DNA from: Myxococcales bacterium
Lineage (GTDB): Bacteria; Myxococcota_A; UBA9042
Assembly (NCBI GenBank): GCA_023954815.1
Contig: JAGSHB010000051.1
Location: forward strand, 1-35,959
Length of the DNA: 35,959 bases
Direction of reading: 5' to 3'
Positions 591 through 18,816 of the stretch are shown here, one piece after another. Numbering within the stretch: the stretch's first letter is position 1; each line of letters opens with the position of its first letter. Made by a program: the position numbers and the translations under genes. The notes under the pieces were generated by a model that had not been told where the DNA came from, did not search any database, and saw nothing but the letters and a program-made list of their open reading frames with translations.

Positions 591-2015
591 TCAGAATTGG
601 AAGTAGATGAAGGGTACGACATCGGTCTCTGCGACGGTCGCCACGCCGACAGCCAGCGCCGCCATACTGGCACCTTTGAGGACCACCGGTAGATCGGTAA
701 ATCGCTGGCTGAACTGATCTACCCACCGCCGCGGCGTCCAGTGAATGCCGTAGGACAGAGCCAGAAGTGCCCACACGCCGGCGTCGATGCGAGCGAGACC
801 CCAGCCGTTGCTGAAGAGATGCTGGGTGTAGTCCGCCGCCTCACCGAAACCGGGCGCACGGAACAGGATCCGCAGCAGCACCACGAAGTGAAACGTCACG
901 AAGACCTTCCACAAGATCTGGTGCCACGGCTGATCGAACTCGTCAGCACGTCGGCCATTTCGGCGTACCAACATGCGGTTGATGCTAATCGCCAGGCCGT
1001 GAATCGCGCCGTAGACCACGAACGTCCAGTTCGCGCCGTGCCAGAGGCCGATCAAGATTAGGGTAATGAACGTGTTGCGATGGGCCTTCCAGATGGAGCC
1101 GCGCGATCCTCCCAATGGAAAGAACACGTAGTAGCGCAGCCAGCCAGCCAACGTGATGTGCCAGCGCCGCCAGAATCCGGCCACGGTGGTCGCCGAATAC
1201 GGCCGGTCGAAGTTTTCAGGCAGCTTGTAACCGAGCAGCTGCGCTGTGCCGATGGCAACGTCTGTGTAGCCCGAAAAATCGCAGTAGATCTGCATGGTGT
1301 AGGCATAGAGCGCGACCATGAGCTCGGGCGAGGAGTAGATCGACGGGTTGGAAAACGCCCGGTCGACCAGGTTGACCGCCAAAAAGTCGGCGATCACGAT
1401 CTTCTTCACCAGCCCGCGGGCAATCCGAAACAGCGCCGCACCGACGTCATCGTGGGTCAGACTGATCTTCTGGTTGAACTGGGGCAGCAAGTCCGCGGCA
1501 CGAACGATGGGTCCGGCGACCAACTGCGGGAAGAAGCTCACGTACAGCGCGAACTTGAGCAGGCTGCGCTCGGCCGGGATGTGGCGCCGGTAGACATCGA
1601 CCGAGTAGCTCATGGTCTGAAAGGTGTAAAAACTGATGCCGACCGGTAGGACGATGCTGAAGATGGGGATGGGCAGGTCGCCGCCGAGCAGCCCGACGCC
1701 GTCGGAGACCGACTGCAGGAAGAAGTTGGTATACTTAAAGTAGCCCAACAGGCCGAGATTCATCGCCAAGCTGCCAAACAACAAGCTCTTGCGTTTGCGC
1801 TGAGACTCCGAATCTTCGATGCGTTGGGCGACCCAGAAATCAACCAGAGTAGACGCCACAATCAGGGCGATGAAGCGCGGGTTCCACGCCATGTAAAAGA
1901 GGTAGGACGCCACCAAGAGGAAGGCGAAACGCAGGGTTCGTTGCTTGCCGAGCGCCCATGAACCGAGCACGGCGACGACGAGGAACACCAAAAATAGCAA
2001 GCTATTGAAGAGCAC
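591..2015 (-). CDS. MBOAT family O-acyltransferase (AlgI/DltB-like)
   Basis: Polytopic membrane acyltransferase of 474 residues. Proteins of this family pass acyl groups across the inner membrane to acylate exported polysaccharide, teichoic acid or other surface sugars. Many hydrophobic segments run the whole length. Family signatures are in order: YCDFSGYTDVAIG at about 244-256, FWRRWHITLAGWLRYY at about 281-296, and GLWHGANWTF at about 323-332, where H326 should be the conserved catalytic histidine; a second conserved His is at 339. Length matches AlgI (about 500). The start is GTG at 2013-2015 with AGAGGG a few bases upstream. The partial gene after it is a likely periplasmic partner, as AlgI has AlgJ/AlgX. 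The acceptor polymer cannot be told from sequence; no alginate genes are visible. Confidence 0.9.
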   Translation of the reverse strand: MLFNSLLFLVFLVVAVLGSWALGKQRTLRFAFLLVASYLFYMAWNPRFIALIVASTLVDFWVAQRIEDSESQRKRKSLLFGSLAMNLGLLGYFKYTNFFLQSVSDGVGLLGGDLPIPIFSIVLPVGISFYTFQTMSYSVDVYRRHIPAERSLLKFALYVSFFPQLVAGPIVRAADLLPQFNQKISLTHDDVGAALFRIARGLVKKIVIADFLAVNLVDRAFSNPSIYSSPELMVALYAYTMQIYCDFSGYTDVAIGTAQLLGYKLPENFDRPYSATTVAGFWRRWHITLAGWLRYYVFFPLGGSRGSIWKAHRNTFITLILIGLWHGANWTFVVYGAIHGLAISINRMLVRRNGRRADEFDQPWHQILWKVFVTFHFVVLLRILFRAPGFGEAADYTQHLFSNGWGLARIDAGVWALLALSYGIHWTPRRWVDQFSQRFTDLPVVLKGASMAALAVGVATVAETDVVPFIYFQF

Positions 2016-2108: not shown

Positions 2109-2633
2109 CTAGTCCTGGTCGCTCGAACGCAGCACCCACCGATGCATGTCGGAGCGCACGCTGGCCCACTCGGCCTGGTCCATGCGCAGACGCACGAACT
2201 TGACGTAGAGCCCATCGAGGATCGCTTCGAGGCGATCAAAGAGGGCGAGTCGCTCGTCGAGCCGCTCATCCTCCACGCTCGTCAACACGGTGGGCAACTT
2301 GGCGCTGCCAAAGGTGAACGTCTCTGCCGAGAAGGACACCTCGTAGTGCTGCTCGCCATGGTCAATGAGGATCCGCGTCTTCGCCACTTTCTTACCGGTT
2401 CTCAGGGCTGTGCGCGCTTCTTCAGCTTGGGCAGGGGCATCGGATTTGACCGTATTGCCGTCCGCTCCGAGGCCCGGAGCCTCTAAAACCAGGCTCTGAC
2501 CGAAGTCGATGCTCACCGCGCCGATGTCAGCGAGTTCGATGTGTGTGCTGTTGCGTTCAGACTCAAACCACAACCAAGTGAGGAACTCACGGCCAAGCCA
2601 GCTGGTGCGGTCTGCGTTTTCGTTTGCGCTCAT
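2109..2633 (-). CDS. C-terminal half of the interrupted RdgC-like protein (or a separate 174-residue protein)
   Basis: Potential product of 174 residues starting at ATG 2631-2633. It has the stretch LGREFLTWLWFESE near residue 13, an alternating charged beta-rich middle, an EARTALRTGKKV stretch and a helical C-terminus. I recognise this block as one seen next to or fused to RdgC-like domains in deltaproteobacterial genomes; its function is unknown to me. No strong ribosome binding site precedes the ATG. The frame is the same as that of the RdgC-like gene upstream, and the 19 codons between contain no stop apart from the TAG that ends the upstream part. It may therefore not be an independent gene but the rest of one broken or read-through reading frame. 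Confidence 0.7.
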   Translation of the reverse strand: MSANENADRTSWLGREFLTWLWFESERNSTHIELADIGAVSIDFGQSLVLEAPGLGADGNTVKSDAPAQAEEARTALRTGKKVAKTRILIDHGEQHYEVSFSAETFTFGSAKLPTVLTSVEDERLDERLALFDRLEAILDGLYVKFVRLRMDQAEWASVRSDMHRWVLRSSDQD

Positions 2634-2690
2634 GGGAGGACTCTCGACAAAAGGGTGCTGGCGGTCAGGGCCGATGCGGCGGGAGCTGGG

Positions 2691-3320
2691 CTAGTTCGAC
2701 GCAAGGTGAAAGCGCTCAGAATCGATCAGCTCAAGCTTGTCGATGTCCTCGTCGCTCATGCCGCGTAGCCAGAGCAAGGTGATCGGTCCGACAGGCCGCA
2801 AAGACAGCGTGAAGGTCTTCTCAAACAGCTCGACGAAGGCGCCGGCGACGCTCTTGGAGGTCGAAAACAGCCGCATCTCTCCGGAGCTGATGTTCCAGGC
2901 GGCCTCGATCAGCTGCATGCGCGGCAGGCTCTGCACACGCAGGTCCTTTTTCACTTCGAGCTTGATCTGATCTTTCTCTGAGCGGGTGAACTTTTCGCGT
3001 TTCAGCTCGACCAGCCGCTTCTTCTCAGCCGCGTGGAGGTAGGCCTTAAAGGTCACGCCGGGGATCTTCAGCGTGTCGATGCGCATGCGCAGGAGCACCA
3101 CGCCGCCGCTACCGATGAGCTCTTCTGGCGCCCAGGTGCCCTCAAACGCGTCGTCGAAACGCACCCAACCCGCGGAGATCTCCTCTTCGCTGTGCGGCTG
3201 AATCTCCCGGAAGGAATTCACCTCGAGGGCATCGGCCCAAGACTGCTCCATGTTCTCTTCGGGGAGTTCCCCCAAAGTGACGAAGCGGCAATAACTGGCA
3301 GAACCGTTGAGCAAGCCCAC
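2691..3320 (-). CDS. rdgC: RdgC-like recombination-associated protein, N-terminal part ending at an in-frame TAG
   Basis: Product of 209 residues. RdgC forms a ring on DNA and modulates RecA and replication restart in Proteobacteria. Family-like features are a start in GLLNGSASYCRF, a DTLKIPGVTFKAYLHA stretch, a lysine/glutamate-rich helix with TRSEKDQIKLEVK, LPRMQLIEAAWN, and MRLFSTSKSVAGAFVELFEK. The start is GTG at 3318-3320 because GGAGG sits five bases upstream and the homology begins there; the longer reading frame to 3512 overlaps the upstream hydrolase gene and has no family match. E. coli RdgC is about 303 residues, so this product is short. The sequence after the TAG (2691-2693) continues in frame into the 174-residue gene, giving about 402 residues in total. 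Assignment to RdgC is from motif similarity and is tentative. Confidence 0.7.
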   Translation of the reverse strand: MGLLNGSASYCRFVTLGELPEENMEQSWADALEVNSFREIQPHSEEEISAGWVRFDDAFEGTWAPEELIGSGGVVLLRMRIDTLKIPGVTFKAYLHAAEKKRLVELKREKFTRSEKDQIKLEVKKDLRVQSLPRMQLIEAAWNISSGEMRLFSTSKSVAGAFVELFEKTFTLSLRPVGPITLLWLRGMSDEDIDKLELIDSERFHLASN

Positions 3321-3349
3321 GAAAACCTCCGACCGATGGGTGCGCGCTC

Positions 3350-15459: not shown

Positions 15460-15488
15460 TTGCACCCAGGCGGTGTGCTGGCTAGTCT
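15460..15488 (+). promoter_or_regulatory. Candidate promoter of the spike/DUF2169 operon
   Basis: TTGCAC (15460-15465), a 17-base spacer and TAGTCT (15483-15488). The transcript would begin near 15495, about 56 bases before the spike gene, whose ribosome binding site AGGAG is seven bases before its ATG. Confidence 0.45.
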
Positions 15489-15550
15489 GGCAACCGCGTC
15501 ACTCATCGACGTCACCCTCAGGCGCTATCGGCGCCACCAGGAGACGCGCC

Positions 15551-16363
15551 ATGCTGCTCGAAGCCACCAAGCGTGACCCCTTCAAGACCAATGGTGTTGT
15601 CGTCGGCATCGTCATCGACAACAAAGACCCCCACGGCCACTACCGCGTCAAGGTGAAGTTCCCCTGGGTGTCGGAGTCCGGAGACTACGCCAGCACGGTC
15701 GTCGACGACGAAGACTTCCGCTCGACCTGGTGTCGCCTGACGTCGTTCATGGCCGGCTCCCGTGACGGCGAAAAGCCCCGCGGCGCCTTCTTCCTGCCGG
15801 AAGTGGACGACGAGGTCTTGCTCGCTTTTGAGCACGGCGATCTGCGCCGGCCCTACGTCATCGGCTCTCTGTGGAACGGCGTCGACCTGCCCCCCCACGA
15901 CAACGACAGCCAGGGCGGCGAGAATAACTTCCGCACGATCCAGTCCCGCGAGGGCCACACGCTGCAGTTCGTCGACGACAACAAGGGCGATCAGCGCATC
16001 ATTCTGCAGAACTTGGTGCAGGTCGATGACACGGTGAAATCGCCGAAAGAGCGCGATGGCCACTGGATCTGCCTCGATCAGAGCGGCGAAGTCGACCAGA
16101 TCGAAATCTACGATCACACCCAAGAGCACTACATCCTGATCGACACCAAGAACAAGAAGATCACGATCGAGTGCGTCACGGGCGACATGGACATCCTGGT
16201 GGAGAAGACCATCACGATGAAGTGCACGGATCTGAAGGTGGACGCCTCCAATAACATCGAGATGAAGGCTGGCACGAACGTTGAGATCGAAGCCGGCAGC
16301 ATGATGAAACTCAAAGCCGGCTCCTTGATCGAAGAGAAAGCCGGCAAGATCACACTGAACTAG
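15551..16363 (+). CDS. gp5/VgrG-like baseplate spike protein (phage baseplate assembly protein V family)
   Basis: Product of 270 residues. Residues about 12-110 form the gp5 OB-fold domain of contractile tail spikes (GVVVGIVIDNKDPHGHYRVK, then FPWVSES, WCRLTSFMAG, FFLPEVDDEVLLAFEHGD, RRPYVIGSLWNG). The following residues carry the SREGHTLQFVDD turn. The C-terminal 70 residues alternate beta-strand and glycine turns with an eight-residue rhythm (NIEMKAGTN, VEIEAGSM, MKLKAGSL), as in the beta-helix of T4 gp5 and VgrG. The gp27-like N-terminal half of VgrG is absent, so this is a short spike as in phage gpV or extracellular injection systems. Start ATG 15551 is set by AGGAG seven bases upstream. 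The DUF2169 gene begins 11 bases after the stop. No sheath, tube or TssB/C gene is in the window. Confidence 0.88.
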   Translation: MLLEATKRDPFKTNGVVVGIVIDNKDPHGHYRVKVKFPWVSESGDYASTVVDDEDFRSTWCRLTSFMAGSRDGEKPRGAFFLPEVDDEVLLAFEHGDLRRPYVIGSLWNGVDLPPHDNDSQGGENNFRTIQSREGHTLQFVDDNKGDQRIILQNLVQVDDTVKSPKERDGHWICLDQSGEVDQIEIYDHTQEHYILIDTKNKKITIECVTGDMDILVEKTITMKCTDLKVDASNNIEMKAGTNVEIEAGSMMKLKAGSLIEEKAGKITLN

Positions 16364-16374
16364 GCCGCGCCACT

Positions 16375-18816
16375 GTGGCTGACCTGCGCAAGGGCTATTG
16401 GGTAGAGTTACTTCCGACGGAGCGATCCGACGGCAAGTTGGTGATCAGTTTTATCGCCAAGCGCACCTTCGCCATCCCCGAAGACGACCCGACGATCAGC
16501 CCCCTCGAAGACGACGATCAGCCGCCCATGCTGACGGAAGATCGCTTCGACGACGGGGATGCTGAGACAGCCGCTCCCACGCTAGAAGCCGAGATTGTCG
16601 CGGAAAAAGCGCTGTGTGACCTCATTGTGGTCGGCAAAGCGTACGCCCCCAGTGGCAAGCCGGAGCGGGAGTGGGAATGCGCGATTCGCGTCGGTCAGGT
16701 GCTGCGTCGCCTCCGTGCCATCGGTCCGCGCGTGGCTCACTACACCCGCCCCAAGAAAAAAGAAGGCAAGCCCGTACCGCAACCACCGCGTTTTTCAGAG
16801 CCGACGCCGATCAAAGAGCTGCCGCTCACCATGTCCTACGCCTATGGCGGACAGACGTGGGTGATTCCCGACCCGAACGCGCTGGCGATTTCGCGTCAGG
16901 TTGAAGCGGTCATGGCTGAAGAGGGCAAGGCCGACAAGGAAAAGAAAGAGGCTGCCAAGCAAGCCAAAGCCGACAAGGCGGCCGCTGAGAAGAAGGCTGC
17001 CGATGAAAAGGCGTTCTTGGAAGCGCCCGTCGGTGGCGGTGACGAGGACGACGAGAAGCTCAAGCGCGCTTGGGGTGACTTCGGCTACGACAAAGAGGGC
17101 GTTCGTGTTTGGGGCGAGGCGACCTCCCAGCGCGGTACGGCCGTGATGGATCTGGACGCTTTCGCCGCCTGGGAAGCTGCGCAGAAAGAGGCTGAAGAAG
17201 CTGCGAAAGCCGCTGGCACGGTCGCCGCTGATGAAAAGGTGGACGACCTTCGCCGCAACGCTGCCGGCGAGGCCCTTGAGACCGACGATGGCGTCGAGAT
17301 TCTGACAGACGATGTATTACAGGATGAGCTGGCCAAGAGCGCGGCGGAGCAGGCTGAACTCAAGGCCGAGCAAGCCGCTGCAGCCAAGCGTCGCCAGCGG
17401 GAGACCGTTGAGCAAAATGACGGCACCCGGGTCTTCGATGTCTCCGATTTGCCTGATGAGGATGACCCCGAGTGGAACGATTCCCTCCAGGCTGATCTGA
17501 AGGAAAAAGACGCTGAGCACATGGCCCTGCTCGACGCAGAACGCAAGGCGCGGGCGAAGGAACGCGAAGAGAAACTCGCTGAGTTCCCGAAGCTTCCGTG
17601 CCCGACGAACCCCTATGGCCGCGGCTTTATCGTCAGCAACGTCAAGCACTTGGTCGAGGGGCTGGAGCTGCCGCAACTCGAAGATCCGGACGCACCGCTC
17701 ACGCCGCGCGATCTGATTCAGTCGATTGAGAAGATGGACGAGGTTCCGCTGCCTGCGGGCTTTTCGACGTGGCCGAGACAGGCCCATCCGCGCATCGAGC
17801 TGGCGGGCGACTACCCGTCGGACGTCAAAGACTACGAGAAGGTGCTGGAGGAGCAGCGGCGCGAGCTCGACTTGGAAGACGAAGACGATGTGATGGTGCT
17901 GCGCGAACTCGATCGCCGGCCGATCCCCGGCATGATGCAGCCCGGCTACTTCAACAGCGCGCCGCCGACCCTGCAGCTCGGTGCGTTGCGCGGCGACGAA
18001 GAAGTGACGCTCACCAACCTGACCAAAGACGGCACGCTGTTTTTCAAACTGCCCGGCCGCGCCCTTGAAGCGGAACTCGATCGCGGCGCTGGGGTGGAGC
18101 GGACCGATCTCAAGCTCGATACGCTCATCGTTGAGCCCGACGCCCGCACGGTGACCATGCTCTGGCGCGCGCATTTTGAGTTCCCGGAGTGGGAAGCCCT
18201 GGAGGCCTACCCGAATCTGGTTGGCTGGGTGCTCGATCTCGACGTCAAAGATCGGCGCCAACGGGACTGGGATGCCGAGGCAAAGGCTGCTCGCAGCGAC
18301 GGCACCATGTCGATGGACCTGTCGGAGATCGATCTGGACGGCGACGTCGAGTACTGGAAGACGATCTCCAACGAGCGCAAAGCGAAAGAGGCCGCCGCCA
18401 TGGCCACCGCCGGCGGTACACAAGCGCTGGACATTGATCGCATGGGCCTGTATCGGCAGACAGATGACGACGACGAGTGGGTCAAAGAGGCCTCCGACGG
18501 TACCGTCGATGTCAGCGCGGAAGCCGCCAAGAAGAAAGAAGAAGAGGAATACCTCGAAAAGAAGATGGCGGCGCTAAAGGACCTCGAGGACAAGGAAAAG
18601 GCCGACGAGATCAGACGCGATGAGGTGGGCGCGGCAGCGGCCGCTGGTAAGCCGATTCCGCCCCGGGACGCTGATAAATCGCCCGCTGAGCTCAAAAAGG
18701 CCAAGGCTGCAAGGGCCAAAGCGGGGGGCGATGCCAAGCCCAAACCGAAACCAAAGGCCAAGCCCAAACCAAAGGCCAAGCCCAAACCAAAGGCCAAACC
18801 CAAGGCCAAGTCGTAG
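16375..18816 (+). CDS. Large DUF2169-domain protein with repeated GTxx(M/F/L)D motifs and a Lys/Pro-rich tail
   Basis: Product of 813 residues beginning at GTG 16375 with no clear ribosome binding site, so probably coupled to the spike gene 11 bases upstream. DUF2169 proteins act as effector adaptors or chaperones beside VgrG in type VI and related systems. The domain is in pieces: residues 1-175 (VISFIAKRTFAI, then LTMSYAYGGQTW), an acidic coiled-coil insertion about 180-400, and 400-625 (FPKLPCPTNPYGRGFIVSN, PAGFSTWPRQAHPR, MMQPGYFNSAPPTLQL, VTLTNLTKDGTLFFKLPG). A charged tail of helical and disordered character follows and ends in Lys-Pro-Lys-Ala repeats. A short motif GT-x-x-(M/F/L)-D-(L/V/I)-(D/S) occurs at T255, T351, T644 and T682 with a shortened copy at T710. 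The insertion and tail are unusual for the family as I know it. Confidence 0.82.
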   Translation: MADLRKGYWVELLPTERSDGKLVISFIAKRTFAIPEDDPTISPLEDDDQPPMLTEDRFDDGDAETAAPTLEAEIVAEKALCDLIVVGKAYAPSGKPEREWECAIRVGQVLRRLRAIGPRVAHYTRPKKKEGKPVPQPPRFSEPTPIKELPLTMSYAYGGQTWVIPDPNALAISRQVEAVMAEEGKADKEKKEAAKQAKADKAAAEKKAADEKAFLEAPVGGGDEDDEKLKRAWGDFGYDKEGVRVWGEATSQRGTAVMDLDAFAAWEAAQKEAEEAAKAAGTVAADEKVDDLRRNAAGEALETDDGVEILTDDVLQDELAKSAAEQAELKAEQAAAAKRRQRETVEQNDGTRVFDVSDLPDEDDPEWNDSLQADLKEKDAEHMALLDAERKARAKEREEKLAEFPKLPCPTNPYGRGFIVSNVKHLVEGLELPQLEDPDAPLTPRDLIQSIEKMDEVPLPAGFSTWPRQAHPRIELAGDYPSDVKDYEKVLEEQRRELDLEDEDDVMVLRELDRRPIPGMMQPGYFNSAPPTLQLGALRGDEEVTLTNLTKDGTLFFKLPGRALEAELDRGAGVERTDLKLDTLIVEPDARTVTMLWRAHFEFPEWEALEAYPNLVGWVLDLDVKDRRQRDWDAEAKAARSDGTMSMDLSEIDLDGDVEYWKTISNERKAKEAAAMATAGGTQALDIDRMGLYRQTDDDDEWVKEASDGTVDVSAEAAKKKEEEEYLEKKMAALKDLEDKEKADEIRRDEVGAAAAAGKPIPPRDADKSPAELKKAKAARAKAGGDAKPKPKPKAKPKPKAKPKPKAKPKAKS
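18742..18810 (+). repeat. 18-base tandem repeat encoding the Lys-Pro-Lys-Ala tail
   Basis: About three and a half copies of an 18-base unit, CCAAAGGCCAAGCCCAAA with small changes, stand at the 3' end of the DUF2169 gene and encode a KPKAKP repeat. The copies keep the reading frame. Such repeats vary in number by slippage, so the length of the basic tail may differ between strains. Confidence 0.8.

What the first reader, a model, noticed from the sequence alone, without database searches (positions are those of the whole stretch)
2109..3320. Single in-frame TAG divides an RdgC-like gene
The 209-residue RdgC-like product and the 174-residue product after it are in the same reading frame (3320 and 2633 have the same phase). 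Between them lies one TAG (2691-2693) and then 19 sense codons (P S S R R I G P D R Q ...) with no other stop, a Pro/Arg-rich sequence like a linker. Removing the TAG gives one protein of about 402 residues. The downstream ATG has no strong ribosome binding site. The choices are a recent nonsense mutation, amber read-through, or a natural split at the domain boundary. TAG is the normal stop for many genes here, so general recoding is unlikely.
Basis: partly seen in the sequence, partly recalled or inferred. Interest (0 to 1): 0.6.

Follow-up and report, generated by a model that had tools for sequence, protein, structure and literature searches.

The report
RdgC-like protein encoded as two genes
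The stop codon is an ordinary gene end: this bacterium, like its relatives, makes the two halves of a ring-shaped DNA-binding protein (RdgC) from two neighbouring genes, whereas some other bacteria make it from one.

Summary
In detail: a 209-codon GTG ORF (3320-2691, minus strand) ends in TAG, and 19 open codons later, in the same frame, a 174-codon ATG ORF (2633-2109) begins. The TAG is neither a recent nonsense mutation nor a read-through site. In 45 genomes of the class (window included) the halves are neighbouring genes, never fused there; only 12 pairs share a frame. In the 30 read in DNA, gene 1 ends in TAG, TGA or TAA and the gap is -4 to +166 nt. The closest species has TGA, another frame and its own ribosome-binding site. 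Both genes are under purifying selection. Gene 1 is most likely the center-plus-tip part, gene 2 the base (dimerisation) part, which no family model recognises. The tree needs several split/fusion changes. So this is a widespread split RdgC, a new variant of a known kind; assembly and function are inferred.

The parts
2691..3320 (-). Gene 1: N-terminal part of a split RdgC-like protein (209 aa, GTG start, TAG stop): center + tip region
   Evidence: ORF; PF04381 weak, positions 23-161; phrog_724 E 8e-5; profile hit to 2owl residues 41-151; fold; dN 0.16, dS 1.04 against G003
3326..3330 (-). Shine-Dalgarno GGAGG before the GTG start of gene 1
   Evidence: sequence; duplex -9.0 kcal/mol
2691..2693 (-). 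TAG: ordinary stop codon of gene 1
   Evidence: replaced by TGA or TAA in relatives
2634..2690 (-). 57-nt intergenic spacer, open in frame by chance; gap varies from -4 to +166 nt in relatives; falls in the disordered linker of the model
2109..2633 (-). Gene 2: C-terminal (base/dimerisation) part of the split RdgC-like protein (174 aa, GREFLTWLW motif)
   Evidence: ORF; no credible family hit; found in 47 of 53 genomes; fused to the N part elsewhere; RdgC fold; dN 0.08, dS 0.92 against G003

Best explanation
The locus is a two-gene operon coding a complete RdgC-like DNA-binding protein as two polypeptides. Shown by sequence: the TAG is a normal stop; the arrangement is old and conserved; the halves occur together, and as one fused protein in other lineages. 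Predicted by model: gene 1 is the center domain with its two-helix tip, gene 2 the base domain, and the stop lies in the flexible linker. Inferred: the two products associate non-covalently, through the interface that joins the domains in the fused protein, into a heterodimer that pairs through the bases (gene 2) and tips (gene 1) into a four-chain ring around duplex DNA, acting as E. coli RdgC does in limiting RecA and helping at stalled forks. Gene 2 is translated from its own start, probably helped by coupling or re-initiation, since its own ribosome-binding site is weak here.
For: Both halves adjacent on one strand in 45 of 45 class genomes where both lie on one contig. Stops TAG 16, TGA 10, TAA 4 in 30 pairs; frames 12 same, 33 other in 45; gaps -4 to +166. 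Sister species G003: TGA, other frame, own Shine-Dalgarno. The halves co-occur in 162 of 284 phylum genomes, with 1 C-only and 2 N-only. Gene 2 starts in relatives have good Shine-Dalgarno sites (median -6.9 against background -2.1). dN/dS 0.08-0.35 for both genes. Fused orthologues in 39 loci, G054, five of seven viral contigs. AlphaFold of a fused homologue (pLDDT 85, pTM 0.82) and of the window pair joined artificially through the TAG (pLDDT 88, pTM 0.85, linker 213-231 under 50) match RdgC structures at E 4e-16 and 4e-15 over most of their length. The pair is the only RdgC hit in the genome.
Against: The pair was folded as one artificial chain; no model of separate chains was made. Sequence similarity to classical RdgC is below the Pfam cut-off. 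DNA binding, ring formation and effect on RecA are untested. Gene 2's ribosome-binding site in this genome is weak.
Confidence: 0.88

Rival explanations
1. Recent nonsense mutation (or sequencing error) in a fused gene.
For: Same frame and one stop; fused orthologues exist in other lineages.
Against: All 29 relatives read in DNA are split, with other stop codons, gap lengths and frames; the nearest species is out of frame; the spacer is unlike those of the two congeners; gene 2 evolves under strong constraint.
Confidence: 0.01
2. Programmed amber read-through gives some fused 402-residue protein beside the two short ones.
For: The frame stays open after the TAG; in some relatives the TAG is followed by 9 nt and the ATG in frame.
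Against: Frame and stop are not conserved (33 of 45 out of frame); no PylS gene found; the short TAG-GAG junctions place a Shine-Dalgarno at the stop, as for re-initiation.
Confidence: 0.02
3. The two genes are separate proteins that are merely neighbours; gene 2 is not part of an RdgC.
For: No family model recognises gene 2; no PDB sequence hit.
Against: Near-perfect co-occurrence and adjacency, fusion in the same order in several lineages, fold match to full-length RdgC covering both halves.
Confidence: 0.06

Closest known systems
RdgC of E. coli and Pseudomonas (PF04381; PDB 2OWL, 2OWY)
   Same: Near whole-length fold match (E 4e-15 to 4e-16, TM 0.70-0.78 by target); tip helices within the first part, base in the second
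   Different: About 15% identity, below Pfam cut-off; two genes instead of one
Phage RdgC-like proteins (phrog_724) and fused Syntrophales homologues
   Same: Same two parts in the same order
   Different: One gene
lambda RexA; CENP-L/CENP-N and Iml3/Chl4
   Same: Related fold reported in PMC11077077; weak Foldseek hits here. Iml3-Chl4 is a heterodimer of two RdgC-like chains
   Different: There each chain holds both domains; here each chain holds one part
RdgC-like protein of 'RdgC histone' operons (PMC11390915)
   Same: Divergent RdgC-like protein in an operon
   Different: Single chain with extra domains, with histone and membrane partners, which are not seen here

Membership tests
RdgC | Sequence match to PF04381 above cut-off | tested here: not met
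   16 bits against cut-off 25; gene 1 only
RdgC | Center, tip and base domains in RdgC order and fold | tested here: met
   Foldseek E 4e-15 over 376 columns for the joined window pair, 4e-16 for a natural fused homologue; tip helices 88-106 and 113-130 in the model
RdgC | Single polypeptide | tested here: not met
   Two genes here and in relatives; single in other lineages
RdgC | Ring-shaped dimer around DNA, RecA inhibition | not testable with these tools
   needs biochemistry
Recoded (read-through) gene | Conserved stop and conserved frame after it | tested here: not met
   stops and frames vary
Recoded (read-through) gene | Pyrrolysine machinery for TAG | tested here: not met
   no PylS found in the draft genome, 97% complete; suppressor tRNA not scanned

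The most novel reading that the evidence does not exclude
RdgC in Myxococcota and relatives is a stable heteromeric ring whose two parts are made separately, allowing a ring that opens and loads on DNA by exchange of the base subunit, unlike single-chain RdgC; splitting and fusing have happened several times.
Probability: 0.35. Interest if true: 0.55.

Novelty: new variant of a known kind. Interest (0 to 1): 0.36.

Why it matters
It gives an identity to a conserved gene family that Pfam, NCBIfam and PHROGs do not recognise (the base half), and shows that genomes in which the Pfam model misses RdgC carry it in divergent, split form. A natural two-chain RdgC would let the center/tip and base functions be studied apart and would test how the ring loads on DNA. 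As a stop-codon puzzle it is ordinary.

Tried and rejected
One search read minus-strand loci in the wrong orientation; its output is discarded and replaced. hung on an endless loop. Alignment A4 mixed single halves with fused rows and was probably misaligned; not used. PDB sequence search with the gene 2 profile found nothing; only the fold search showed the relation. The fused copy in G007 has no match in 50,697 phage records, so its phage origin is unproven, although an HNH gene and a helicase-like fragment lie near. Literature searches found no account of a split RdgC, within an open-access library only. In the tree rows L061, L141, L093, L109 and L089 have long branches and their places are unsure.

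Full report
What is there. On the minus strand, a GTG-started ORF of 209 codons runs 3320-2691 and ends in TAG. Nineteen sense codons follow in the same frame, then an ATG-started ORF of 174 codons, 2633-2109, also ending in TAG. With 63% G+C a 57-nt gap is in frame and free of stops by chance in about 19% of cases.

Not a broken gene. The first product was found in 47 of 53 genomes (own included) and the second in 47 of 53. In the 45 class genomes where both lie on one contig they are neighbours on one strand in the same order; 12 pairs share a frame and 33 do not. In the 30 pairs read in DNA (window included) the first gene ends in TAG 16, TGA 10 and TAA 4 times, the gap runs from -4 to +166 nt, and 9 show the window's pattern of one in-frame stop. 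The nearest species, G003 (76% and 89% protein identity), has TGA, another frame and a 34-nt gap. dN/dS against it is about 0.16 and 0.08. The start of the second gene in relatives carries a Shine-Dalgarno site (median -6.9 kcal/mol, background -2.1), although in the window it is weak at -3.0. In several relatives the stop itself overlaps a TAGGAG, as for re-initiation. No PylS gene was found in the genome. Nonsense mutation and read-through are therefore very unlikely.

But the halves are one protein elsewhere. Among 80 loci from GTDB species genomes found with the second half, 38 hold both halves in one ORF of 348-380 codons, mostly Syntrophales and other deltaproteobacterial MAGs, with one Planctomycetota; a second, divergent copy in G007 (L061) is fused too (lengths), as are G054 in the same phylum (L144) and five of seven viral contigs (L151 and L154 are split). 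In a tree of joined halves the split rows are not one clade (4 changes on the tree, at least 3 forced by well-supported branches; AU p 1.5e-7); five split rows (L094, L115, L117, L122, L132) lie inside the fused clade (the 12-row group that holds them has SH-aLRT 97). Long-branched rows are unsure, so the number and direction of changes are not settled.

What it encodes. Gene 1 matches RdgC weakly (PF04381 16 bits, cut-off 25; phrog_724 E 8e-5; its family profile matches E. coli RdgC residues 41-151). Gene 2 matches no family credibly and no PDB sequence. AlphaFold of a natural fused homologue (L096) gave pLDDT 85 and pTM 0.82, and its best PDB match is RdgC, E 4e-16, TM 0.78 by target. The window pair, read through the TAG only as a modelling device, gave pLDDT 88 and pTM 0.85, with the long stretch under 50 at residues 213-231, the spacer, and matched E. 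coli RdgC at E 4e-15 over 376 columns. RdgC consists of a center domain, a tip of two helices spliced into it and a base domain, base and tip making the dimer ring (described in PMC11077077). By the order of elements, gene 1 is center plus tip and gene 2 the base; this assignment is inference from the model. The pair is the only RdgC match in the genome.

How it probably works. Two products from one transcript associate through the center-base interface and pair into a four-chain ring on duplex DNA, with the RecA-limiting and fork-related role known for RdgC. Association, ring and function are inferred. Co-occurrence in 162 of 284 phylum genomes, against one with gene 2 alone and two with gene 1 alone, supports mutual dependence; in draft genomes those exceptions may be gaps.

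Verdict. The stop is ordinary. The worthwhile result is that a widely conserved, unnamed gene next to a divergent rdgC is most likely the missing base half of RdgC, and that split and fused forms interchange. No account of this was found in the open-access library, which is no proof of novelty.

Noticed in passing
window 15473-18816 (+): Short Phage_base_V (VgrG/gp5-type OB) protein followed by an 813-aa DUF2169 protein with a K/P/A-rich tail: looks like a secretion or injection spike with its adaptor.
   Followed up: partly
L061 (G007:C33:98500-102000): Second, divergent, fused RdgC copy in a relative, near an HNH gene and a helicase-like fragment; possibly a prophage, but no match in phage records.
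   Followed up: partly
L094, L115, L117, L122, L132: Split pairs nested inside the fused, mainly Syntrophales clade: a probable independent gene fission.
   Followed up: partly
L151, L154 (viral contigs): Split RdgC-like pairs on contigs classed as viral, beside fused ones on others.
   Followed up: no
L077: A MAG record titled 'Klebsiella pneumoniae' carries a clear Myxococcota-type pair; the title is probably a mislabel.
   Followed up: no
window 594-2015 (-): MBOAT acyltransferase directly downstream; the same kind of neighbour follows the pair in G019 (L062).
   Followed up: no
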